DNA of 64,000 bases, taken from NCBI RefSeq assembly GCF_023639785.1, contig NZ_CP098325.1:248001-312000 (forward strand), given 5' to 3'. Origin of the DNA: Leclercia adecarboxylata (GTDB taxonomy: Bacteria > Pseudomonadota > Gammaproteobacteria > Enterobacterales > Enterobacteriaceae). Shown one piece after another: positions 3,944-61,586 of this stretch (positions within the stretch are counted from its first letter, which is position 1; the number at the start of each line of letters is the position of its first letter). The notes under the pieces were generated by a model. The model had not been told where the DNA came from. It made no database searches and was given only the letters and a program-made list of their open reading frames with translations. Made by a program: the position numbers and the translations under genes.

Positions 3944-4025
3944 CCCTCTCCCCTCAGGGGAGAGGGCCGGGGTGAGGGGGTTCATGCGACCCTCACCCTA
4001 ACCCTCTCCCTAAAAGGGAGAGGGG
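3944..4025. repeat. Head-to-head pair of short palindrome-plus-tail repeats between malE and malF
   Basis: Unit one (3944-3978) is CCCTCTCCC plus its inverse and then a GGGGTGAGGG tail. Unit two (3990-4025) is the same unit inverted. The pair forms a strong stem immediately 3' of malE. The same family recurs at 10788, 24221, 42394, 42776, 47006, 50762, 57794/57840 and 61505/61551. By position it probably protects the malE transcript from 3' decay, as REP does in E. coli (inference). Confidence 0.85.
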
Positions 4026-23099: not shown

Positions 23100-24179
23100 A
23101 TGCAAGCGGCAACTGTAGTCATTAACCGCCGCGCTCTGCGACACAACCTGCAACGCCTGCGTGAACTGGCGCCCGCCAGCAAACTGGTTGCAGTCGTGAA
23201 AGCGAACGCTTACGGACACGGTCTCCTCGAGACCGCGCGAACGCTCCCCGATGCCGACGCCTTTGGCGTCGCCCGTCTCGAAGAAGCCCTGCGCCTGCGC
23301 GAAGGGGGCATTACCCAGCCAATCCTGCTGCTTGAAGGCTTCTTTAATGCCGCCGATCTGCCGACCATTGCAGCGCAACAGCTGCATACCGCCGTGCACA
23401 ATATGGAGCAGCTTGAGGCGCTGGAAAACGCGGTGCTCAGCGAGCCCGTTACCGTGTGGATGAAGCTCGACACCGGCATGCACCGCCTGGGCGTCCGCCC
23501 GGAGCAGGCCGGGGCCTTTTATCAGCGCTTATGCCAGTGCAAGAACATTCGCCAGCCGGTCAATATCGTCAGCCATTTTGCCCGCGCCGACGAGCCCGAG
23601 TGCGGCGCCACCGAGCAGCAGCTCGATATCTTCAACACCTTCTGCGAAGGCAAGCCGGGGATGCGCTCTATCGCGGCATCCGGCGGCATTTTGCTCTGGC
23701 CGCAGTCCCATTTCGACTGGGCACGTCCGGGTATTATTCTTTACGGCGTCTCGCCGCTGGAGGGTAAACCCTGGGGGCCTGATTTCGGTTTTCAGCCGGT
23801 CATGTCGCTTACCTCCAGCCTGATAGCGGTGCGCGAGCACAAAGCCGGGGAACCGGTCGGCTACGGCGGCACCTGGATCAGCGAGCGCGACACCCGTTTA
23901 GGCGTGGTGGCGATGGGCTACGGCGACGGCTATCCGCGCGCGGCGCCCTCCGGGACGCCAGTGCTGGTGAATGGCCGGGAAGTGACTATCGTCGGACGCG
24001 TGGCGATGGACATGATCTGTGTCGACCTTGGGCCAGAGGCGCAGGAGAAAGCGGGGGATCCGGTGACCCTGTGGGGCGAGGGTTTACCCGTGGAGCGAAT
24101 TGCTGAGATTACAAATGTGAGTGCTTACGAACTTATCACGCGGCTGACGTCGCGGGTGGCGATGCACTATCAGGACTGA
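23100..24179 (+). CDS. alr: Biosynthetic alanine racemase Alr
   Basis: PLP enzyme making D-alanine for peptidoglycan. It has 359 residues as in E. coli. The PLP-binding Lys34 lies in [10 protein letters not shown], the second catalytic base Tyr in [11 protein letters not shown] near 254-264, and the barrel ends with [23 protein letters not shown] precedes the ATG. In E. coli tyrB follows within a few hundred bases; here about 2 kb of repeat plus IS separates the two genes. Confidence 0.97.
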
Positions 24180-24377
24180 TGTTGATTTCCCTCTCAGGGA
24201 TGGAAATCTGCACGGTCGGCCCCCTCTCCCTTGAGGGAGAGGGTTGGGGTGAGGGGGAACATGCGATTGTAGTGGTGGTTCCGTTCACCTTACGTTCTGC
24301 ACTTCTCTGTCAGGCGCATCACCCGTGAACGTGTGAAGGGGGCTCGTCCTGCACTGAACCCCGTTTCCTGGACACCT

Positions 24378-25223
24378 CTATTCTTTTGTTTTTTCTGCCT
24401 GAGTCCGGTACGTCACCGGGCTCAGGCCGCCAGTTTTCAGGCTAATTCGTTCGGTGTTGAAGTAACGAATATAAGCCCTGATATCCCGCTCCAGCTCCTT
24501 CACGGAACCATACTTCTTGCGGTAGTACATCTCCACTTTCAGATGACTGAAGAAGTTTTCCATTACTGCATTATCCAGGCAGTTTCCCTTTCGCGACATA
24601 CTCTGGACTATCCCGGCTTTTTCCAGCATTAACCGCCATGCCGGCGTCCTGTAAGCCCAGCCCTGATCGCTGTGTAAGACCAGGCCTTCACTATGTCTTT
24701 TTGCTTTCAGGGCCTTATGTAGCATCCTGCAGACCAGAGGCTGTGACGGGCTGGTCGACATATTCCAGGCCACGATTTCGTTGTTGAACAGATCCTGCAG
24801 GGCTGACAGGTACAGTTTCTGTCCCCCGGCCCGGAACTCCGTCACATCCGTACACCACTTGATCCCGCTTCGTTCAGCGCTGAAGTCGCGGGCCAGCAGA
24901 TTGGCGGATGCCAGCCCTGCATCCGGCATATACGAGCGGTATCTTTTCCGCCGCAGCTGACAGGTGAGGCCATGCTCTTTCATCAGCCTGCGCACTGTCT
25001 TGTGATTGAGCGTGAAGCCCTCATCCCGCAGTGCTCTCGTCATTCTCCGGTAGCCATAACGCTGCGCATGCCGCTGGCTGATGGCCTTCATTGCACTGAC
25101 CGCATCCGCATAACGCTCAGTCCCGTGCTCAGGGTGCGAGACATGATAATAATATGTGCTGCGTGACAACCGCGCGGCATACAGCAGGCAGGGCAGCCTG
25201 TGTGCCGTCAGCAACGACTGCAC
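24378..25223 (-). CDS. IS150-group transposase OrfB (catalytic part)
   Basis: 281 residues of an rve integrase-core transposase. The DDE triad is visible: Asp in KWCTDVTEF, Asp in LHSDQGWAYR and Glu in NAVMENFFSHLK. An N-terminal HTH_21-like segment (HAQRYGYRRMTRAL) precedes it. It can start at a GTG at 25223, but the active transposase of this family is normally the OrfAB fusion made by -1 frameshifting on the A6 run at 25232-25237. No stop or frameshift breaks the frame, so the IS may be active. Confidence 0.92.
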   Translation of the reverse strand: MQSLLTAHRLPCLLYAARLSRSTYYYHVSHPEHGTERYADAVSAMKAISQRHAQRYGYRRMTRALRDEGFTLNHKTVRRLMKEHGLTCQLRRKRYRSYMPDAGLASANLLARDFSAERSGIKWCTDVTEFRAGGQKLYLSALQDLFNNEIVAWNMSTSPSQPLVCRMLHKALKAKRHSEGLVLHSDQGWAYRTPAWRLMLEKAGIVQSMSRKGNCLDNAVMENFFSHLKVEMYYRKKYGSVKELERDIRAYIRYFNTERISLKTGGLSPVTYRTQAEKTKE

Positions 25224-25738
25224 TATTCTGGTTTTTTCTCCTGCTCCCTGAGCGCGTTTTCTTCTCTCAGGGCTTTCAGCTTTTTTAAGTAAGCATTTTC
25301 CGCACGCAGATATTCCAGCTCCCTCTGCAGTTCTTTGGGCGTCATTTCACTGAAGGGCTTAGCACCGGGGACATATTTTTTCTGTGACATAGCGGGTCCG
25401 GGTCTGGCAGTGTGAAGCGCCTTTGCCCCTCCCCTCCGGTAGCGCCTCATCCAGTTGAGAATAAGGGATTCATTGGGGATGGCGAAGCGCGATGAAGCCT
25501 CCGCATAGCTGCACCTGTTTTTTGCGACGTAACGGACAACGCGGAGCCTGAATTCTGCAGTATAGGTCCGCGCAGGACGGTCCTCCAGCCCGGCTTTACC
25601 CTGACGACGGTAAGCCCGTAGCCAGCGGGTCAGGGGTGATTTGCCGACACTGAACAGGCGGGCTGTTTCTTTAATGCCCGACTTTCCGGCCATGTAATGC
25701 TCTACAGCCGCAAGTCTGATATGGAAAGGATGTTTCAT
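25223..25738 (-). CDS. IS150-group OrfA (DNA-binding part)
   Basis: 171 residues with two helix-turn-helix segments, about 8-50 (GIKETARLFSVGKSPLTRWL) and 62-105 (SYAEASSRFAIPNESLILNW), then a C-terminal coiled coil (ELQRELEYLRAENAYLKKLK) typical of IS3-family OrfA. Its TAG stop at 25223-25225 follows the A6 slippery run GAGAAAAAACC, and orfB is in the -1 frame. That is the expected layout for programmed frameshifting. Confidence 0.92.
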   Translation of the reverse strand: MKHPFHIRLAAVEHYMAGKSGIKETARLFSVGKSPLTRWLRAYRRQGKAGLEDRPARTYTAEFRLRVVRYVAKNRCSYAEASSRFAIPNESLILNWMRRYRRGGAKALHTARPGPAMSQKKYVPGAKPFSEMTPKELQRELEYLRAENAYLKKLKALREENALREQEKKPE

Positions 25739-26187
25739 CGTTCTGAACCTCCAGATTTGGAATCTGGTGTCCAGGATCCGGGGTTCAGTGCACCGCCACC
25801 CCCTTCACAATCCCGGCTCCCGGCAAAGAAAATCGCCGCTTCGCGGTACCCTCAGCTTATTCCCTCCGGCTATCGGGTCGGGCGTGATCCTACATCCATG
25901 TAGGTCACGCCCTCTCGGCGCATCCATGCGCCTCGCCCCGGCCTGCGGTAAACGCTTCGGCGCTTTTCAGCCGGACCAGGGAGCCGCTGTAAGCCTTTTA
26001 TTCTCCTGTAATCACTTTATTGCATTAAGAACAAGAAAATTAACGGAGATCCCTCAGTCCTGATGAGAGAAGGAGTAAAACAGGTTCTGCCGCCCACACC
26101 CCATCTTCCTTAACATCCTCTCGATCTTCTGCCGCTTCCGGTTTATTGTTGAATTCCCCGCCTCATTATTATCCGGAGAACCATCGC

Positions 26188-27381
26188 GTGTTCCAGAAAG
26201 TCGACGCCTATGCTGGCGACCCTATCCTCTCCTTAATGGAGCGTTTCAAAGAAGATCCGCGCAGCGATAAAGTTAACCTCAGCATCGGTCTTTACTACAA
26301 CGAAGCGGGCATTATTCCGCAGCTGCAGGCGGTGGCCAAAGCCGAAGCGCGTCTCAACGCCACGCCACACGGTGCGTCGCTCTATCTGCCGATGGAAGGG
26401 CTTAACAGCTACCGTCACACCATTGCCCCGCTGCTGTTTGGCGCAGACCATCCTGTGCTGACACAGAAGCGTGTCGCTACCATCCAGACTCTGGGCGGCT
26501 CCGGCGCGCTGAAGGTCGGGGCCGACTTCCTGCACAAGTATTTTCCGGAATCAGGCGTCTGGGTGAGCGATCCGACATGGGAAAACCATGTCGCCATTTT
26601 TGAAGGCGCAGGTTTCACGGTAAACACCTACCCATGGTTTGACGACCAGACCAACGGCGTGCGCGTTGCTGCGCTGCTGGAAAAACTGAACACCCTGCCG
26701 GAGCGCAGCATTGTCTTGCTGCACCCGTGCTGCCATAACCCAACCGGGGCCGATCTGACCAACGATCAGTGGGATGCGGTTATTGAGGTGCTGAAAGCCC
26801 GCAACCTGATCCCGTTCCTCGACATTGCCTATCAGGGCTTTGGCGCCGGAATGGAAGAGGACGCTTACGCCATTCGCGCCATCGCCAGCGCGGGTCTGCC
26901 GGCGCTGGTCAGCAACTCCTTCTCGAAAATCTTCTCCCTGTACGGCGAACGTGTCGGTGGCCTGTCCGTGGTCTGTGAAGACCAGGAAGCCGCAGGGCGC
27001 GTGCTTGGCCAGCTGAAGGCCACCGTGCGCCGCATTTACTCCAGCCCGCCGAACTTTGGTGCGCAGGTGGTGGCGACCGTGCTGGGCGATGACGAACTCA
27101 AAGCCGAGTGGCTGGCAGAGGTAGAAGCGATGCGTACCCGCATTCTGGCCATGCGTCAGACGCTGGTGGATGTGCTGAAAGACGCCGTGCCGGGGCACAA
27201 CTTTGACTACCTGCTGCAGCAGCGCGGGATGTTCAGCTATACCGGCTTCAGCGCGCAGCAGGTGGATCGCCTGCGCGAGGAGTTTGGCGTCTATCTGATT
27301 GCCAGCGGGCGTATGTGCGTTGCCGGCCTGAACAGCAGCAACGTTCAGCGCGTGGCGAAAGCCTTTGCTGCTGTAATGTAA
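26188..27381 (+). CDS. tyrB: Aromatic amino acid aminotransferase TyrB
   Basis: PLP-dependent transaminase for the last step of Tyr, Phe and Leu synthesis. The start is a GTG at 26188 ([11 protein letters not shown]), with GGAGA ten bases before it; this gives 397 residues as in E. coli. An ATG frame at 26146 would add 14 residues not in the family. The PLP Lys lies in [14 protein letters not shown] near 247, and the PLP-phosphate Arg in the same run. The promoter must lie in or just after the structured repeat. I could not find a convincing TyrR box. Confidence 0.96.
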
Positions 27382-37898: not shown

Positions 37899-37914
37899 CC
37901 CGACGCATAAAAAA

Positions 37915-37944
37915 CTAAAGCGCCACAACAGGGCGCTTTAGTTT
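37915..37944 (+). terminator. Terminator after soxR
   Basis: CTAAAGCGCC/GGCGCTTTAG stem preceded by A run and followed by TTT. Confidence 0.8.
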
Positions 37945-38173
37945 ATTCCCGGTCTTTGTCTTTCTCTCTATCCCGCTGGTTCACAGGAGGGTTTCCCCCG
38001 ACATCAACACCCCTCAGTCGAGCATCTGGTGGAGGTTCCGGTTTGTGCTGACAATTTAAGTCTAGGCCGCCGCCTCAGGTTTGCCAGCCTCAGCGCGCAA
38101 AAACTCGGCAAAATTTTTTCGCCAGGTTGTGCAATTTTCTATAGTTAGAGGGTTCGTTTAACTGGAGATGTCC

Positions 38174-40644: not shown

Positions 40645-42291
40645 ATGGAAATTTTCTTCACAATACTCATCATGACCCTTGTGGTCTCACTTTCCGGGGT
40701 AGTTACCCGCGTACTGCCCTTTCAGCTACCGCTGCCGCTTATGCAGATTGCCATCGGTGCTCTGCTGGCATGGCCGACGTTCGGATTGCATGTCGAGTTT
40801 GATCCTGAACTGTTTCTGGTGCTGTTTATTCCTCCTTTGCTGTTTGCCGACGGCTGGAAAACGCCCACGCGCGAGTTTCTTGAGCACGGGCGCGAGATCT
40901 TAGGCCTGGCGCTGGCGCTGGTGGTTGTCACCGTGGTGGGGATCGGTTTTCTCATCTACTGGGTGGTGCCGGGCATCCCGCTGATACCGGCCTTCGCGCT
41001 GGCGGCGGTACTGTCGCCAACGGATGCCGTGGCGCTGTCCGGCATCGTCGGTGAAGGGCGCATGCCGAAAAAAATCATGGGGATTTTGCAGGGCGAGGCG
41101 CTGATGAACGACGCCTCCGGTCTGGTGGCCCTGAAGTTTGCCGTCGCCGTGGCGATGGGCACGATGATCTTCACCGTCGGCGGCGCTACCGTAGAGTTCT
41201 TCAAAGTCGCCATCGGCGGCATTCTCGCCGGTTTTGTGGTCAGCTGGCTGTATGGCCGCTCGCTGCGCTTCCTCAGCCGCTGGGGCGGCGATGAACCCGC
41301 CACGCAGATCGTGCTGCTGTTCCTGCTGCCGTTCGCCTCTTATCTGATTGCGGAACATATTGGCGTATCGGGCATTCTGGCCGCGGTGGCGGCGGGGATG
41401 ACCATCACCCGTTCCGGCGTGATGCGTACCGCGCCGCTGGCGATGCGCCTGCGCGCCAACAGCACCTGGGCGATGCTGGAGTTTGTCTTCAACGGCATGG
41501 TCTTCCTGCTGTTGGGCCTGCAATTACCGGGCATCCTCGAATCCTCGCTGGTGGCGGCAGAGGCCGATCCCAACGTCGAAACCTGGATGCTGTTTACCGA
41601 CATCGTGCTGATTTACGCCGCGCTGATGCTGGTGCGCTTCGGCTGGCTGTGGACGATGAAAAAATTCAGCGTGCGTTTCCTGAAAAAGAAACCGATGGAG
41701 TTTGGCTCCTGGACCACGCGTGAGCTGCTGATTTCAACCTTTGCAGGTGTGCGCGGGGCGATCACCCTGGCCGGTGTGCTCTCCATTCCGTTGCTGCTGC
41801 CGACCGGCGACGTCTTCCCGGCGCGCTACGAGCTGGTGTTCCTGGCGGCGGGAGTGATCCTGTTTTCGCTGTTTGTCGGCGTCGTCATGCTGCCCATTCT
41901 GCTCCAGCACATGGAGGTGGGCGATCACGTCCAGCAGCATAAAGAGGCGCGTATTGCCCGGGCGGCGACCGCCGAGGTGGCCATTGTCACCATTCAGAAG
42001 ATGGAGGAGCGTCTGGCGGCCGATACCGAAGAGAACATCGATACCCAGCTGCTGAAAGAGGTGAGTTCGCGGGTGATCGGTAACCTGCGTCGCCGTGCGG
42101 ATGGCCGCAATGACGTCGAGAGCACGTTGCAGGAAGAGAACCTCGAACGCCGCTTCCGCCTGGCCGCGCTGCGCTCGGAACGCGCGGAGCTGTACCACCT
42201 GCGCGCTACCCGGGAGATCAGCAACGAGACGCTGCAAAAACTGCTGCACGATCTCGATTTGATGGAAGCCTTATTGATAGAAAAGCAGTAG
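40645..42291 (+). CDS. yjcE: CPA1-family Na+/H+ antiporter YjcE
   Basis: Predicted monovalent cation/proton antiporter in the inner membrane. It has 548 residues (E. coli 549). About 12 helices are visible in residues 1-410, with the CPA1 motifs LSPTDAVALSGIV near 129-141 and LMNDASGLVALKFAVAV near 153-169 holding the ion-binding Asp residues. The C-terminal cytosolic region (about 425-548) is rich in charged helices (RRRADGRNDVESTLQEENLERR). K-12 has yjcF between it and actP; here the LysR-cid genes fill that place. Confidence 0.94.
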   Translation: MEIFFTILIMTLVVSLSGVVTRVLPFQLPLPLMQIAIGALLAWPTFGLHVEFDPELFLVLFIPPLLFADGWKTPTREFLEHGREILGLALALVVVTVVGIGFLIYWVVPGIPLIPAFALAAVLSPTDAVALSGIVGEGRMPKKIMGILQGEALMNDASGLVALKFAVAVAMGTMIFTVGGATVEFFKVAIGGILAGFVVSWLYGRSLRFLSRWGGDEPATQIVLLFLLPFASYLIAEHIGVSGILAAVAAGMTITRSGVMRTAPLAMRLRANSTWAMLEFVFNGMVFLLLGLQLPGILESSLVAAEADPNVETWMLFTDIVLIYAALMLVRFGWLWTMKKFSVRFLKKKPMEFGSWTTRELLISTFAGVRGAITLAGVLSIPLLLPTGDVFPARYELVFLAAGVILFSLFVGVVMLPILLQHMEVGDHVQQHKEARIARAATAEVAIVTIQKMEERLAADTEENIDTQLLKEVSSRVIGNLRRRADGRNDVESTLQEENLERRFRLAALRSERAELYHLRATREISNETLQKLLHDLDLMEALLIEKQ

Positions 42292-42300
42292 CTGCTGATT

Positions 42301-42328
42301 GCCCGGTGGCGCTGCGCTTACCGGGCCT
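42301..42328. repeat. REP unit after yjcE
   Basis: GCCCGGTGGCGCTGCGCTTACCGGGC-type unit with a GCCTG tail, directly 3' of yjcE. Confidence 0.75.
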
Positions 42329-42393
42329 GTGCATCACTCTCCCTCTCCCTTCGGGCTGAGGGATCCCTACAAAAAATAGTGGCACAGTCGGCT

Positions 42394-42811
42394 CCCTCTC
42401 CCTTGAGGGAGAGGGCTGGGGTGAGGGGGAACATGCGACAGAGGTGGTGGTTCCGTTCACCTTACGTTCTTTGCCTCTCTGTCACACCTGAACCGGTGAA
42501 CGTGCCAGGGGGGCTCGCCGCCTCCCCCCTGGCTACCCCGGCTCCCGGCAAAGAAAATCGTCGCTTCGCGATGCCTTCAGCTTATTCCCTACGGCTATCG
42601 GGTCGGGCGTGATCCTGGATCCATGTAGGTCACGCCCTCTCGGCGCATCCATGCGCCTCGCCCCGGTCTGCGGTCAACGCCTCAGCGATTTTCAGCCGGA
42701 CCAGGGAGCCGCGGTAAGTCACTTATTATTCTGTAATTATTTCGTTGCATCAGGCGTAAGAAAATGACTGGGGAACCCTCAGCCCTTCGGGAGAGGGTTG
42801 GGGTGAGGGGG
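42394..42811 (+). repeat. Structured composite repeat, copy 2 (intact)
   Basis: A 418-base element bounded by short repeat units (42394-42429 and 42776-42811). In order: CGTTCACC/GGTGAACG (42454-42461 and 42495-42502); a hairpin with 10-bp arms (42504-42513 and 42524-42533) and loop CTCGCCGCCT; an outer stem CGGCTCCC/GGGAGCCG (42539-42546 and 42704-42711). Inside the outer stem are a TCGC/GCGA hairpin (42561-42571), GGGCGTGA...TCACGCCC (42605-42637), GGCGCAT/ATGCGCC (42642-42657) and a small CGC/GCG hairpin. No gene except the end of the LysR frame. Copy 1 shows compensating changes. I do not recognise the family; a structured RNA or a mobile palindromic element are both possible. Confidence 0.78.
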
Positions 42812-43687
42812 AACCCAAAACCCCTCACAGCATTTCAGCCACGCCTGGGCGCTGTGCGACAGGTACACCCCCTCCCGCCAGATCATCCCCAGCTGCCAGT
42901 GCAGATCGCTCTGCAGCGGGATCCAGCGCAGGGTGTTTTTATCCAGCCGCTCACAGATGGGCTGCGGTAATATCGCGATCCCGACTCCCGCCTGTACCAT
43001 CGCCGCCAGAAAATCCCACTGTCCGCTGCGCACCGCGATGCGTGGCTTCACGCCATGCTGGTTGAACAGCTGCATCAGCTGGCGGCTGAGGGCAAAATCT
43101 TCGTTGTAGATAAGCAATGGATGCTCGGCCAGAAGTTCAGGGTTGATGGCATCGAGCTTCAGCCAGCTGCCGGAGCGCGGCACCAGCACGCAGAGCGGAT
43201 GGCTGAACAGCGGCAGAGCGGTCAGACCGCTGTCCTCCTCCACCGGCAGGGCGGTCATCGCCAGATCCAGCTCGCCGTTAATGACCGCCTGCTGGACGGT
43301 TAATCCGCCAAATTCAGAAATTTTCAGCTCAACGCCGGGATAGTGCTGGCGAAACAGCCCGATGGGCCCGGCCATCATCATGCCCACCATCGGGGGTATG
43401 CCAAGGCGCAGTATGCCTTTATTCAGGTGGTTGATATCACCAAGCTCCGCCTCCAGCTGGCGAAACTCGGCCAGGATGGCCAGCCCGCGCTCAAACACCA
43501 CGCGACCGGTGTCGGTTAAGAGCAGCTTGCGGCCATCGCGGATCAGCAGGGTACAGTTCAGTTCATCTTCGAGGTTTTTCAGCATTTTGCTGATGGTGGG
43601 CTGGGTGACAAAGAGCTTTTCCGCGGCGCGGGTAAAACTCTGCTGGCGGACCACTTCGACAAAGTAACGCAGCGTGCGTATGTCCAT
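42779..43687 (-). CDS. LysR-family regulator next to cidAB
   Basis: 302 residues. The N-terminal winged HTH spans 1-60 (DIRTLRYFVEVVRQQSFTRAAEKLFVTQPTISKMLKNLEDEL), followed by an effector-binding domain of type 2 periplasmic-binding fold. It is divergent from cidA, so it most likely controls cidAB in the manner of CidR in other bacteria (inference). The last residues VPPHPNPLPKG and the stop are read from a short repeat unit (42776-42811), so the original C-terminus was probably altered by that repeat. Confidence 0.88.
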   Translation of the reverse strand: MDIRTLRYFVEVVRQQSFTRAAEKLFVTQPTISKMLKNLEDELNCTLLIRDGRKLLLTDTGRVVFERGLAILAEFRQLEAELGDINHLNKGILRLGIPPMVGMMMAGPIGLFRQHYPGVELKISEFGGLTVQQAVINGELDLAMTALPVEEDSGLTALPLFSHPLCVLVPRSGSWLKLDAINPELLAEHPLLIYNEDFALSRQLMQLFNQHGVKPRIAVRSGQWDFLAAMVQAGVGIAILPQPICERLDKNTLRWIPLQSDLHWQLGMIWREGVYLSHSAQAWLKCCEGFWVPPHPNPLPKG

Positions 43688-51583: not shown

Positions 51584-51736
51584 TTAACCTGCTGCGCAGG
51601 CTAATTTCGTCGCCACCACATATTTTTCACTCTTTATTGTGAGCTCGCATAACTTACCGCGATTAATAAAGGCGAATATTATTATGGTCAGGCAAATAAT
51701 AATAATTATGCCTAACACAGTTTTTAATGGCGTCAT
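51584..51736 (-). CDS. Hok/Gef-family type I toxin
   Basis: 50 residues beginning MTPLKTVLGII. One hydrophobic helix spans about 6-24 (IIIIICLTIIIFAFI), then the family hallmark RGKLCELTIKSEKYVVATKL, closely resembling the Hok/Gef motif with LCEL and a periplasmic tail with a second Cys. AAGGAG lies eight bases before the ATG. Membrane depolarisation is the known role of the family. It is not in K-12 at this place. The upstream region shows the hok-type mRNA hairpins and a leader ORF. Could also be called hok; no symbol is assigned because several chromosomal variants exist. Confidence 0.85.
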   Translation of the reverse strand: MTPLKTVLGIIIIICLTIIIFAFINRGKLCELTIKSEKYVVATKLACAAG

Positions 51737-51741
51737 GCCCT

Positions 51742-51822
51742 TTACTCCTTGCTAAGAAAAGAATAAGGGGCTATCCTCAACTTGTCGGTTGTTGAGGGAT
51801 AGCCCCCGGTTAATGGAAACAT
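51742..51822 (-). CDS. Mok-like leader peptide of the hok-type locus
   Basis: 26-codon frame (MFPLTGGYPST...) ending GAG TAA just five bases before the toxin ATG, overlapping its ribosome site. In hok/sok systems translation of mok is needed for toxin synthesis and is blocked by Sok RNA. Here the same geometry suggests coupling. The peptide itself has no recognisable domain. Confidence 0.5.
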   Translation of the reverse strand: MFPLTGGYPSTTDKLRIAPYSFLSKE

Positions 51823-51835
51823 TACCGGGGTTTTT
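51755..51835 (+). ncRNA. Candidate Sok-type antisense RNA
   Basis: On the plus strand, opposite the leader, lie a GGGGCTATCCTCAAC stem with its inverse GTTGAGGGATAGCCCC, then CCCCGGTTAATG/CATTACCGGGG followed by TTTTT (51804-51835), a fine intrinsic terminator. The minus-strand region further up shows the GCTTAAGAC/GTCTTAAGC hairpin (51868-51890) and GACAGAAAG seen in hok messages. The 5' end is a guess. Confidence 0.55.
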
Positions 51836-51836
51836 C

Positions 51837-52056
51837 ACTTTCTGTCCCTCAATACGGCTTAAGACAGAAAGTCTTAAGCACCCGCTGCTAATCTTATCCT
51901 CATGAAGTAAAAAGAAAAGATGTAATCCATTTTGTGCGAAATTACATTTCTCTGGAATGGTTCTCGCAAAATAATATTTATTTTTTAAATTTGAAAGTTA
52001 CAAATAAAAAAGGAGTGAATATTTCACCCCTTTTATTCGTGGTTCCGTTAATTAAA
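51837..52056. other. AT-rich leader/promoter region between the hok-type locus and fdhF
   Basis: 220 bases, AT-rich, holding the presumed promoter and 5' leader of the toxin mRNA on the minus strand. Near 52010-52036 a GAGTGAATATTTCAC inverted repeat precedes TTTTATT and may end a transcript. No gene. Confidence 0.45.
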
Positions 52057-54204
52057 TTACCCTGATGCGACTTCCCGTAATTGATTTTTCAGCGCATTAT
52101 ATTCATCGATAACATACTGCTCGGCGGCGGCCTGATCCGCTATCGGCTCCACGCGTACGGCGCAATATTTATATTCCGGCGTTTTGGTTATTGGGCTCAG
52201 GTTTTCCGTTACCAGCTCATTGCAGGCACCAATCCACCACTGGTAGGTCATGTATACCGCGCCGGGGTTGGGGCGATCGCTCACCTGCGCCCGGGTGATC
52301 ACCCGGCCCTTGCGGGAGTTGACCCACACCAGCATCTCATCCTCAATGCCCAGCCGGTCGGCATCTTCAGTGTTGATTTGCACATAGCCGGGCTCATCGG
52401 CCAGCGCCGAAAGTGCCGCACAGTTGCCGGTCATGGAGCGGCAGGAGTAGTGTCCCACTTCGCGCACGGTAGAGAGCACCAGCGGATATTCCGGCGAGAG
52501 CTTGTCCATCGGCGCCATCCAGTCGCAGGTGAAGAACTGCGCCAGGCCGTTCGGGGTATCGAATTTCTCTTCAAACAGGAACGAGGTACCTTGATCTTCC
52601 GGCGACTCGTCCCGGCACGGCCACTGAATGTAGCCCAGCTCGCCCATCTTCTCGTAGGTCGCCCCCTTGAAGCCCGGACAGAGCTGGCGCAGCTCGTCCC
52701 AGATTTGTTGGGTGTTATCGTAGTGCATCGGATAGCCCATGCGGGTGGCGATCTCGCTGATAATCTGCCAGTCGGTTTTCAGATCCCACTTCGGCTCCAC
52801 GGCTTTGAAGAAGCGCTGGAAGCCGCGATCGGCTGCGGTGTAGACCCCTTCATGCTCGCCCCAGGAGGTGGCGGGCAGGATCACGTCCGCTGCCGCCGCG
52901 GTTTTGGTCATAAAGATATCCTGGACAATCACCAGCTCCAGATCGTCAAAGGCTTTACGCACCGCCGAAAGTTCGGCATCCGTCTGGAGCGGATCTTCCC
53001 CCATGATGTATGCCGCCCGCACTTCGCCGTGGGCCGCGCGGTGCGGCAGTTCGCTGATCCGGTAGCCGGTGTGCGCAGGCAGGCTCTCCACGCCCCAGGC
53101 TTTGGCAAATTTCTCGCGGTTTTCCGGAAACTTAACGTACTGGTAGCCCGGATAGGTATCCGGCAGCGCCCCCATGTCGCAGGCCCCCTGGACGTTATTC
53201 TGCCCGCGCACCGGGTTGACCCCGACATGGGCTTTCCCGAGATTGCCGGTCAGCATGGCGAGGCTGGTGAGCGCGCGCACCGTTTCCACCCCCTGCCAGA
53301 ACTGGGTGACGCCCATTCCCCACAGCAGGGTAGCCGTTTCTGCTCCGGCGTACAGGCGCGCGGCCTGACGGATCTCCCGCGCGCTTACGCCGGTGATGGC
53401 CTCCACCGACTCCGGCGTATAGCGTTCAACAATTTTACGATAGGTATCAAAGCCTTCCGTGCGGGTGGCAACAAAGGCCCGATCGTAGAGATCCTCCGCA
53501 ATAATCACCTGCCCGATAGCATTGAGCAGGGCGATATTCGAGCCGTTTCGCAACGCGATATGCATATCTGCAATGCGCGCGGTTTCAATCCGCCGGGGAT
53601 CGCAGACGATAATTTTTGCCCCGTTCTCTTTAGCGCGCAGGATATGGTTGGCGACGATCGGGTGCGAGTCCGCCGGGTTATAGCCGAAAATAAACACTAA
53701 CGCAGTGTTATCGATCTCGTTGATAGCGTTGCTCATGGCGCCATTACCGACCGACTGGTGCAGACCTGCAACCGAGGGGCCGTGTCAGACGCGCGCGCAG
53801 CAGTCGACGTTGTTGGTGCCGATAACGGCGCGGGCAAACTTCTGCATCAGGTAGTTGGTTTCATTCCCGGTCCCGCGTGAGGAGCCGGTGGTCTGGATGG
53901 CGTCCGGGCCATATTTTTCCTTGATGGCGCTGAGGCGGCTGGCGACATAGTCCAGCGCTTCCTCCCAGGAGACGGGCTCCAGCTTGCCGCCGCGCGCGCT
54001 GCGGATCATCGGGGATTTCAGACGCGGGGTGAGGATTTGGGTGTCGTTGATAAAATCCCAGCCAAAGTAGCCCTTCAGGCACAGCTTACCCTGATTGGTT
54101 CTGCCGTTGGCGGCCTCCGCCCGGACGATATTGCCGTTATCGACCACCAGGTTAATCTTGCAACCGGATGCGCAATAGGGGCAAACCGTGACGACGTTTT
54201 TCAT
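52057..54204 (-). CDS. fdhF: Formate dehydrogenase H, selenocysteine-containing
   Basis: Mo-bis-MGD selenoenzyme that oxidises formate in the formate hydrogenlyase complex. It appears as two frames because an in-frame TGA at 53785-53787 encodes selenocysteine 140 (CCARV-Sec-HGPSVAG). Read through, it gives 715 residues, exactly the E. coli length. [4Fe-4S] cysteines lie in CPYCASGC (8, 11, 15) and LCLKG (42). The SECIS hairpin follows the TGA. This is not a pseudogene. The hyc genes lie elsewhere. A sigma-54 promoter precedes it. Confidence 0.97.
53748..53787 (-). promoter_or_regulatory. SECIS element of fdhF
   Basis: Immediately 3' of the UGA. The upper hairpin (53757-53773) reads GGTTGCAGGTCTGCACC with the AGGTCT apical loop recognised by SelB in E. 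coli fdhF. Confidence 0.93.
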
Positions 54205-57793: not shown

Positions 57794-57875
57794 CCCCTCA
57801 CCCTAACCCTCTCCCCACAGGGGAGAGGGAACCTGAACACCCTCTCCCCTGTGGGGAGAGGGCCGGGGTGAGGGG
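57794..57875. repeat. Pair of short repeats 3' of the sugar-binding protein gene
   Basis: Inverted units at 57794-57829 (tail first) and 57840-57875 (palindrome first), the same family as 3944-4025, lying between the binding-protein gene and the isomerase gene. Confidence 0.85.
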
Positions 57876-61504: not shown

Positions 61505-61586
61505 CCCCTCACCCCGGCCCTCTCCCCAAAGGGGAGAGGGTGTAATTGTTCCCTCTCCCCTTTGGGGAGAGGGTTAGGGTGAGGGG
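61505..61586. repeat. Pair of short repeats between the sugar operon and the sensor kinase
   Basis: Inverted units at 61505-61540 and 61551-61586 with CCCTCTCCCC/GGGGAGAGGG palindromes and GGTGAGGGG tails. Here they lie in a divergent promoter gap rather than 3' of a gene, so a purely message-stabilising role is unlikely for this copy. Confidence 0.85.

What the first reader, a model, noticed from the sequence alone, without database searches (positions are those of the whole stretch)
42394..42811. Intact structured composite repeat with nested hairpins, unknown family
A 418-base element in the yjcE/LysR gap has an outer stem CGGCTCCC/GGGAGCCG enclosing at least three internal hairpins. Two more stems lie to its left, and a short repeat unit caps each end. 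A homologue lies at 24221-26070. Arms that differ between copies keep pairing: the hairpin at 42504-42533 uses CCAG/CTGG where copy 1 has TGAAG/CTTCA, and the small TCGC/GCGA stem is CCGC/GCGG in copy 1. Compensating changes imply that a folded RNA or DNA is selected. One inner stem (CCTGGAT/ATGTAGG here) is only partly compensated. I know of no named enterobacterial repeat of this form (it is not ERIC, REP or boxC as I remember them).
Basis: partly seen in the sequence, partly recalled or inferred. Interest (0 to 1): 0.85.

Follow-up and report, generated by a model that had tools for sequence, protein, structure and literature searches.

The report
Mini-transposon carrying a folded TRIP1-like repeat
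The structured repeat is a 427-base mini-transposon with the ends of a known kind of bacterial jumping gene; it carries a folded DNA repeat related to one already known in E. coli and has jumped into the tip of another hairpin repeat, which explains why the two kinds of repeat are found glued together.

Summary
The unit is window 42356-42782 (427 bp), not 42394-42811. It has inverted ends CTGAGGGATCCC.../...GGGGAACCCTCAG and sits in the loop of a BoxC (TMECO) hairpin, flanked by an exact 9-bp duplication CCCTTCGGG. Of 29 orthologous yjcE-lysR gaps read, 27 have no core match. In a congener, seven 1279-1280-bp copies of an IS4-family IS have the same ends and also lie in BoxC; five keep exact 9-bp duplications. 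So I read the unit as a MITE of that kind of IS.

Inside lie a BoxC motif and a ~283-bp multi-hairpin core homologous to E. coli TRIP1 (72% over 178 bp), a repeat already in print. The core also occurs without IS ends or BoxC (64 of 151 copies).

Covariation is genuine: 13 of 27 variable pairs tested beat every tree-based null. But paired changes are mostly Watson-Crick to Watson-Crick (142 events, against 25 to G.U and 39 to A.C). That points to DNA palindromes more than to a selected RNA, without proving it. The core's function remains inferred.

The parts
42356..42782 (+). Whole mobile unit (427 bp), an IS4-family-type MITE carrying BoxC plus a TRIP1-like core
   Evidence: Inverted ends and exact 9-bp duplication; 34 copies in the loci read have both ends (this one included), 33 of them 424-429 bp long; orthologous sites without it
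42347..42355 (.). Left target-site duplication CCCTTCGGG (loop of the target BoxC)
42783..42791 (.). Right target-site duplication CCCTTCGGG
   Evidence: across units 13 of 16 match, shuffled mean 2.6
42356..42374 (+). Left terminal inverted repeat (CTGAGGGATCCCTACAAAA); matches the CACAAA-type end of IS4-family relatives
42764..42782 (-). Right terminal inverted repeat (reverse complement CTGAGGGTTCCCCAGTCAT); the consensus of 11 such ends is identical over 19 bases to the GTAAT end of the 1279-bp IS
42394..42427 (+). Internal BoxC/TMECO intrastrand-triplex motif
   Evidence: Exact match to the published pattern; 9 in the window, 0 in 100 shuffles
42429..42711 (+). TRIP1-like core (283-position profile)
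   Evidence: Profile match in L227; homologous to K-12 TRIP1a and TRIP1c
42454..42502 (+). Hairpin H1, CGTTCAC (42454-42460) / GTGAACG (42496-42502)
   Evidence: 706 of 707 cells Watson-Crick but only 2 double changes: conserved, little covariation
42504..42533 (+). Hairpin H2 (central); insertion site of an IS3-family element in four other copies of this genome
   Evidence: 1001 of 1009 cells Watson-Crick, 57 double switches; four pairs beat all nulls
42545..42560 (+). 5' arms of closing stems P0 (CCGGC) and P1 (AAAATCG)
   Evidence: consensus; positions; no P0 or P1 pair beats all nulls
42686..42699 (+). 3' arms of closing stems P1 (CGATTTT) and P0 (GCCGG)
   Evidence: consensus; positions
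42561..42571 (+). Hairpin H3 (TCGC/GCGA here, CCGC/GCGG in most copies)
   Evidence: two pairs beat all nulls
42605..42637 (+). Hairpin H4 (tip decayed in this copy)
   Evidence: two pairs beat all nulls
42642..42657 (+). Hairpin H5 (GGCGCATCCATGCGCC)
   Evidence: one pair beats all nulls
42301..42327 (.). REP-like palindrome left of the insertion (name recalled), present with variations in several unoccupied orthologous gaps
24182..26060 (+). Second copy in the window, split by an IS3-family element; left IS4-type end decayed, right end recognisable (limits approximate, read by eye)
24350..25792 (-). IS3-family element in the loop of hairpin H2; ORFs 25223-25738 and 24378-25223; all four full copies found in this genome sit in this hairpin

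Best explanation
The feature is a non-autonomous mini-transposon (MITE). Its two ends are those of an IS4-family insertion sequence of the type found as a 1279-1280-bp element in a congener and on an Enterobacter cloacae plasmid. Such a transposase, acting in trans, recognises the ends (CTGAGGGWTCCCCA...), cuts the unit out and inserts it into a G+C-rich hairpin, here the BoxC loop CCC-NNN-GGG, copying 9 bp. The internal sequence is a captured pair of older repeats: a BoxC triplex motif and a TRIP1-like core that folds into several hairpins and also exists on its own. Shown by sequence: ends, target duplication, unoccupied orthologous sites, shared ends and shared target with the IS, homology to TRIP1, covariation. 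Inferred: mobilisation in trans; capture of the core by the IS (rather than the reverse); that the hairpins act as DNA. I think the core is mainly a passenger whose hairpins are kept as near-perfect DNA palindromes by concerted arm change, and which in turn serves as a landing site for other IS elements.
For: Exact 9-bp duplication and inverted ends. 13 of 16 units with recognisable CCCNNNGGG on both sides share NNN; shuffled mean 2.6, largest 10 in 20,000. Orthologous gaps: 27 of 29 read have no core match, some with an uninterrupted BoxC next to the same REP. The IS in G018: seven copies, IS4-family transposase (NF033591, 304.5 bits, cut-off 152), ends and BoxC target as in the MITE, 5 of 7 with exact 9-bp duplication; plus a plasmid copy with duplication. 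The MITE right-end consensus equals the G018 IS end over 19 bases (shuffle p 0.0015 beyond base 14); the left-end consensus equals the second end of relatives L309 and L315 over 20 bases and of L308 over 19 (no shuffle test run for these). IS4-type elements in all (G018 and plasmid copies, and relatives at about 35-52% protein identity): 31 distinct with both ends, 22 with a duplication of 9-12 bp; the rebuilt sites have mean stem 8.6 against 4.1 for random sites. Independent core: 64 of 151 copies have neither a recognised IS end nor a BoxC, even a degenerate one; chance of finding an IS4-type end is about 0.006 per end. Homology to TRIP1: profile 148.1 and 144.0 bits; host core 72.5% over 178 bases, E 1e-23 in a four-locus comparison.
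Against: The host genome has no such transposase at E<=1e-40, and only 2 of 36 congeneric genomes have one, so present mobility there is doubtful. With ends located by a fixed pattern, only 7 of 34 two-ended units show an exact 9-bp match (6 more 8 of 9; expected 3.7% exact by mispairing); the 13 of 16 figure covers only units still set in clear BoxC halves. Three of these 16 (L117, L130, L158) have unequal loops, and 2 of 7 G018 IS copies lack a matching duplication; recombination between BoxC copies is my explanation and was not tested. Left-end similarity to the G018 IS beyond the first 14 bases is not significant (p about 0.10). Ends vary between CTGAGGG and BoxC-like AGAGGG, so some ends may be BoxC rather than IS. 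9 of 31 IS4-type elements gave no duplication, one for lack of flank. No transposition was observed.
Confidence: 0.85

Rival explanations
1. A selected structured RNA: the core is transcribed (for example from the upstream gene's 3' end) and folds into a functional or transcript-stabilising RNA; mobility is secondary.
For: Multi-helix covariation including long-range pairs. Convergent gaps are the commonest setting: 58 of 114 classed copies, 18 more dropped for short ORFs, no genomic background computed. Stems P1, P3 and P4 do hold G.U (17 of 700, 17 of 300, 15 of 393 cells), and P3 and P4 lean to G.U over A.C (12 events against 3). Li et al. predict a double-Y RNA fold for TRIP1 (PMC10888264, passage read).
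Against: Over the 55 pairs tested: 142 double Watson-Crick switches, 25 to G.U, 39 to A.C; no excess of G.U on the + strand. H1 and H2 hold 1 G.U in 1716 cells, whereas 8 tRNAs found here give 7 G.U in 173 and no A.C (small control). No Rfam family. No transcript data.
Confidence: 0.2
2. The composite arose without transposition: homologous recombination between scattered BoxC motifs moved TRIP1-like segments between BoxC sites.
For: BoxC is abundant (9 in the window, two of them inside copies of this repeat) and has been linked to rearrangement (PMC4666352, abstract and passages); unequal flanking loops in 3 of 16 units; ends that alternate with BoxC sequence.
Against: Length is near-constant (33 of 34 two-ended units are 424-429 bp), loops match in 13 of 16 units, and the same ends bound an IS4-family IS.
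Confidence: 0.1
3. The bare TRIP1-like core is itself an independent mobile element with its own mechanism, and the IS4-type shell is a later addition in one lineage.
For: 64 of 151 copies have no recognised shell or BoxC and sharply unconserved flanks; no BoxC-like match (2 substitutions allowed) in the three K-12 stretches of about 2.1-2.3 kb around TRIP1; core found in 28 of 154 genera of the family, a lower bound.
Against: No mobilising enzyme identified; no PF01797 (RAYT-type) transposase in this genome. Target duplication was not tested for bare copies. Bare copies could be old ones whose shell has decayed: 8 of the 72 first classed as bare keep a degenerate BoxC.
Confidence: 0.4

Closest known systems
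TRIP1 repeats of Escherichia coli (Rudd 1999, not read, cited in PMC10888264; Li et al. 2024, PMC10888264, abstract, parts 1-2 of 5, part of the reference list and passages read)
   Same: Homologous core (profile 148.1 and 144.0 bits; 72.5% over 178 bases), similar size (264-273 bp for four types, 146 bp for TRIP1b), intergenic, 3' of genes, multi-hairpin fold, partial copies with internal deletions
   Different: Here set in IS4-type ends with a BoxC motif; stem GTTCAC/GTGAAC replaces GCGCTCC/GGAGCGC; 18 long matches in this genome against zero to five copies per E. coli genome in Li et al.; the words BoxC, Enterobacter and Klebsiella do not occur in the main text of Li et al.
BoxC / PIT / TMECO intrastrand-triplex motif (Holder et al. 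2015, PMC4666352, abstract and passages)
   Same: The internal motif matches the published pattern exactly; the target is of the same kind
   Different: Only one part of this unit and its target; in the passages seen there is no report of insertion into it by an IS4-type element
IS4 family ('IS4 family goes genomic', 2008, PMC2266710, passages); one Photorhabdus relative is labelled ISSfl3 by a source
   Same: IS4-family transposase, single ORF, target duplication of about 10 bp
   Different: This unit has no transposase; target is BoxC; subgroup not determined
IS elements that target REP palindromes (IS1397, ISKpn1, IS621, ISRm22; PMC1525189, passages)
   Same: Insertion into hairpin repeats; the IS3-family element here sits in hairpin H2 in all four copies found
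   Different: Target here is a TRIP1-like core or BoxC, not REP
ERIC and Correia-type MITEs (PMC10969869, passages)
   Same: Short non-coding unit with inverted ends, intergenic, many copies
   Different: IS4-type ends, 9-bp rather than TA-type target (the TA target is recalled), captured composite cargo; sequences not compared

Membership tests
MITE (non-autonomous DNA transposon) | Terminal inverted repeats | tested here: met
   CTGAGGGATCCC / CTGAGGGTTCCC; 34 of 196 near-complete cores show both ends with up to 2 mismatches, 19 left only, 20 right only, 123 neither
MITE (non-autonomous DNA transposon) | Target-site duplication | tested here: met
   Exact 9 bp here; 13 of 16 units in clear BoxC halves; 7 of 34 exact with ends located by fixed pattern, against 3.7% expected
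MITE (non-autonomous DNA transposon) | Unoccupied orthologous sites | tested here: met
   27 of 29 gaps read without a core match; 3 more genomes with a matching flank were not fetched and 3 had no matching flank
MITE (non-autonomous DNA transposon) | Ends shared with an element that encodes a transposase | tested here: met
   1279-1280-bp IS4-family IS in G018
MITE (non-autonomous DNA transposon) | Moved in trans by that transposase | not testable with these tools
   Needs an assay
TRIP1 repeat | Sequence homology to K-12 TRIP1 | tested here: met
   Profile: TRIP1c 148.1 bits, TRIP1a 144.0 bits, internally deleted TRIP1b 19.4 bits; host core by BLAST 72.5% over 178 bases of TRIP1a and TRIP1c
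TRIP1 repeat | At least 80% length coverage by BLAST with K-12 TRIP1 (the criterion of Li et al.) | tested here: not met
   The host core aligns over 178 bases, about two thirds of TRIP1a or TRIP1c (their BLAST settings were not copied exactly). So 'TRIP1-like', not TRIP1 in their sense
BoxC / TMECO | CCCTCNCCCN3-6GGGNGAGGGN3GGGNGAGGG | tested here: met
   42394-42427 exact
Rfam RNA family | Match at the gathering score | tested here: not met
   None over 42280-42850
REP/RAYT system | PF01797 transposase in the genome | tested here: not met
   0 matches at E<=0.001 in G000; 5 of 14 control genomes rang, E. coli among them
ERIC | ERIC consensus | not tested
   Not compared

The most novel reading that the evidence does not exclude
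A nested economy of hairpin-seeking transposons. An IS4-family lineage uses hairpins (BoxC, terminator-like stems) as integration sites, has captured the TRIP1-like fold and carries it as cargo. The TRIP1-like core is a DNA-structural parasite whose arms are kept as perfect palindromes by concerted, strand-symmetric correction rather than by RNA function, and its hairpins are themselves docking sites for further IS families (IS3 in H2, IS110 and IS3 in H4, IS481 in the internal BoxC).
Probability: 0.35. Interest if true: 0.75.

Novelty: new variant of a known kind. Interest (0 to 1): 0.6.

Why it matters
BoxC and TRIP1 have been known since the 1990s (from the papers seen) as enterobacterial repeats, and I found no stated mode of spread for them in the passages read. 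Linking both to one IS4-type transposase with a defined target makes their spread directly testable, explains why they occur as one composite, and offers a clean case (142 paired Watson-Crick switches with few intermediates) for asking how palindromes stay perfect. It also warns that compensating changes in repeats need not mean a functional RNA.

Tried and rejected
Rfam, gathering and permissive: nothing above chance. Phage records: no match. Viral contigs: 4 stretches with the stem pattern; they entered the pool of copies (one, L221, is among the 34 two-ended units) but their context was not studied. RAYT transposase: none in this genome. RSA as the known name: considered from memory, then replaced by TRIP1; RSA itself was not compared. 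RNA versus DNA by G.U/A.C strand asymmetry: no clear strand preference (25 against 39). The all-pairs covariation test was conservative: of 9 pairs at E<0.05, 4 are H2 consensus pairs, 4 link H2 arms to columns 108 and 111 (I read these as haplotype or gene-conversion effects) and 186-200 is one column off register. The pair-wise test treats the chosen structure as given. The IS3-family element of the window: no near match in plasmids or E. coli genomes. Papers: searches; in their listings I saw no report of this composite as an IS4-type MITE, but most subscription journals are not held, only a few of the listed papers were opened (passages), and Rudd 1999 was not read.

Dropped before counts: 18 of the 73 consensus pairs, left out by eye as loop-near or poorly paired; redundant copies at 93% identity or more before covariation (166 to 101); copies without 150-bp flanks; 18 copies with short flanking ORFs; seven IS loci without both ends found. 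Several genome searches scored only part of their candidates (40 of 99; 12 per genome; 2; 4), so their counts are lower bounds.

Full report
What is there. The sequence at 42000-43200 was read directly, as was the second copy at 24000-26300. A BLAST search of the host genome with 42380-42830 gives 58 matches (40 of 99 candidates scored), many of them BoxC arms alone; 18 places match over at least 188 bases, four of these being right halves of copies split by an inserted IS. 33 of 36 genomes of the genus (host included) and none of 24 genomes of other families of the order have the core at E<=1e-5. In the family, 54 of 295 genomes and 28 of 154 genera match, a lower bound because only two candidates per genome were scored. 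In E. coli, 5376 of 5426 complete genomes match a query that also held the REP-like palindrome and BoxC, so that count is not of the core alone; listed rows do include core matches of 254 and 456 bases. The host's own genus was not named by any tool; Enterobacter is my inference.

True limits. The orthologous yjcE-lysR gap was read in 29 congeneric genomes. 27 have no core match at E<=1e-5; one (L249) has a bare partial core; one (L251) has the left part of the same unit cut by another IS. Three further genomes with a matching flank (G007, G015, G035) were not fetched, and three had no matching flank. Several unoccupied gaps show a REP-like palindrome followed by one uninterrupted BoxC, for example L247 and L256. 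In the host the BoxC is split...CCCTCTCCCTTCGGG | CTGAGGGATCCC...GGGGAACCCTCAG | CCCTTCGGGAGAGGG.... The inserted unit is 42356-42782 (427 bp) and the duplicated bases are 42347-42355 and 42783-42791.

Same anatomy elsewhere. Among 295 distinct matches, 196 near-complete cores were examined within 160 bases for ends with up to two mismatches: 34 have both ends, 19 the left only, 20 the right only, 123 neither; 33 of the 34 are 424-429 bp long. With ends placed by that fixed pattern, 7 of 34 show an exact 9-bp match and 6 more 8 of 9, against 3.7% and 9.2% by mispairing. In units with a recognisable CCCNNNGGG on both sides, the three loop bases agree in 13 of 16 (shuffled mean 2.6, largest 10 in 20,000; one search had counted both strands). 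Disagreeing units are L117, L130 and L158. One agreeing unit, L295, is an internally deleted 317-bp form.

The partner IS. The end pattern CTGAGGGWTCCCCA was searched in 36 genomes of the genus: 26 have it, and the reversed control pattern is found in none. In G018 seven pairs of ends lie 1279-1280 bp apart. The copy read in full (L287) encloses a 391-aa protein that passes the NCBIfam cut-off for IS4-family transposase (304.5 bits, cut-off 152; DDE_Tnp_1 in Pfam); all seven copies match it at 98-100%. All seven lie in BoxC; five have exact 9-bp duplications. A 99.4% identical copy lies on an Enterobacter cloacae plasmid, also in BoxC with its duplication. The right-end consensus of the mini-element (11 ends) agrees with one IS end over 19 bases (shuffle p 0.0015 for the part beyond the first 14). 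The left-end consensus (17 ends) agrees with the other G018 IS end less well (p about 0.10), but equals the second end of relatives L309 and L315 over 20 bases and of L308 over 19. Relatives in other genera (21 of 392 family genomes at E<=1e-60, at most 4 candidates scored each) tend to insert into hairpins, many followed by T-runs as in terminators. Over all IS4-type elements read, 31 have both ends and 22 of these have duplications of 9-12 bp; mean stem 8.6 pairs against 4.1 at random sites. The most distant ones with a duplication (L325, L327, L333; about 35% identity) have stems of only 4-5 pairs, like random sites. The host genome has no such transposase at E<=1e-40.

The cargo. The internal BoxC fits the published TMECO pattern exactly. 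The remaining core is homologous to TRIP1 of E. coli K-12, at the coordinates given by Li et al. (PMC10888264): profile 148.1 bits for TRIP1c and 144.0 for TRIP1a; a partial copy lies between yegH and asmA. By plain BLAST the host core is 72.5% identical to TRIP1a and TRIP1c over 178 bases, which is below the 80% length criterion of Li et al., so I call it TRIP1-like. Of 151 near-complete copies with 150-bp flanks, 57 have at least one IS4-type end, 22 have an exact BoxC only, and 72 have neither; 8 of those 72 still show a degenerate BoxC (0.2 expected by chance), leaving 64 bare. Flanks of the bare class show almost no conservation outside the core. So the core exists independently and seems to have been captured, or to have lost its shell often; the direction is inferred.

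Structure. A consensus fold on 101 non-redundant copies (73 pairs) shows hairpins H1-H5 closed by CCGGC/GCCGG and AAAATCG/CGATTTT. 55 pairs, chosen by eye, went into the tests. Against substitutions re-dealt on the tree over all column pairs, 9 pairs pass E<0.05; 4 are H2 consensus pairs, the rest are discussed under Tried and rejected. Against per-column tree nulls, 13 of 27 variable pairs exceed all 200 nulls: H2 four, H3 two, long-range P2 four, H4 two, H5 one. P1, P3 and P4 have none, no P0 pair varied enough, and H1 hardly varies. Parsimony events: 142 double Watson-Crick switches, 25 to G.U, 39 to A.C, 57 to other mismatches. H1 and H2 hold 1 G.U and 4 A.C in 1716 cells; P1, P3 and P4 hold 17 of 700, 17 of 300 and 15 of 393 G.U. 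tRNAs found in the same loci hold 7 G.U and no A.C in 173 (8 tRNAs only). I read this as palindromes maintained at DNA level, perhaps by template-switch correction; gene conversion between copies would inflate event counts, so this remains an inference.

Setting and use by others. Of 114 copies with long ORFs on both sides, 58 lie between convergent genes, 25 and 17 between tandem genes, 14 between divergent genes; 18 were dropped and no genomic background was computed. All four full copies of an IS3-family element found in the host sit in the H2 loop of this core, and none of 59 other genomes searched has that IS at E<=1e-100. In other genomes an IS110-family element (L297) and an IS3-family element (L296) lie in H4, and an IS481-family element in the internal BoxC (L294, junctions read; the same left junction at L251).

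Known and new. TRIP1, BoxC, IS4 elements and hairpin-targeting IS are all known. What I did not find in the searches made is the link between them: a 427-bp IS4-type MITE that carries a TRIP1-like core and targets BoxC. The closest frame is MITE; the functional role of the core is open.

Noticed in passing
window 24350-25792 and G000:C1 1185310, 1520112, 3741796: An IS3-family element, 4 of 4 full copies found in the host genome inserted in the same hairpin loop of the TRIP1-like core; absent at E<=1e-100 from 59 other genomes searched. A candidate site-specific IS comparable to IS1397/ISKpn1.
   Followed up: partly
window 3944-4024, 57795-57874, 61506-61585: BoxC/TMECO motifs come as pairs in opposite orientation 10-11 bases apart.
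   Followed up: no
L308, L309, L313, L330, L331, L335: IS4-family relatives sit in terminator-like hairpins (G+C stem followed by T-run) with 10-bp duplications, so the insertion restores a hairpin on each side.
   Followed up: partly
L192, L197, L208 (also beside L013, L014, L124, L187): In L192, L197 and L208 the 3' half of the core is replaced by another block that ends in CCGGTTCGCCGATTTCAGCGGGGAC (with variants); the same block lies in the opposite orientation next to the cores of L013, L014, L124 and L187. Possibly a separate repeat family.
   Followed up: no
L109, L182, L202, L025: Some copies carry an extra multi-hairpin insert at hairpin H3 (TTCGCCCCATCCCTGGGGCTCACCCC and variants); modular growth of the fold.
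   Followed up: no
G226, G309, G120, G193, G082, G338: Pairs of cores in opposite orientation, matched parts 83-91 bases apart, BIME-like.
   Followed up: no
window 37911-38052, 51734-51883, 53738-53792: SraL, a sok antitoxin RNA and a SECIS_2 element by Rfam.
   Followed up: no
E. coli mmuM-tauA gap, L032: A full-length unit with IS4-type ends and an 8 of 9 duplication; 17 of the 20 listed E. coli records show a match of the same length, but only this one's context was read. Possibly a polymorphic insertion suited to study in E. coli.
   Followed up: partly
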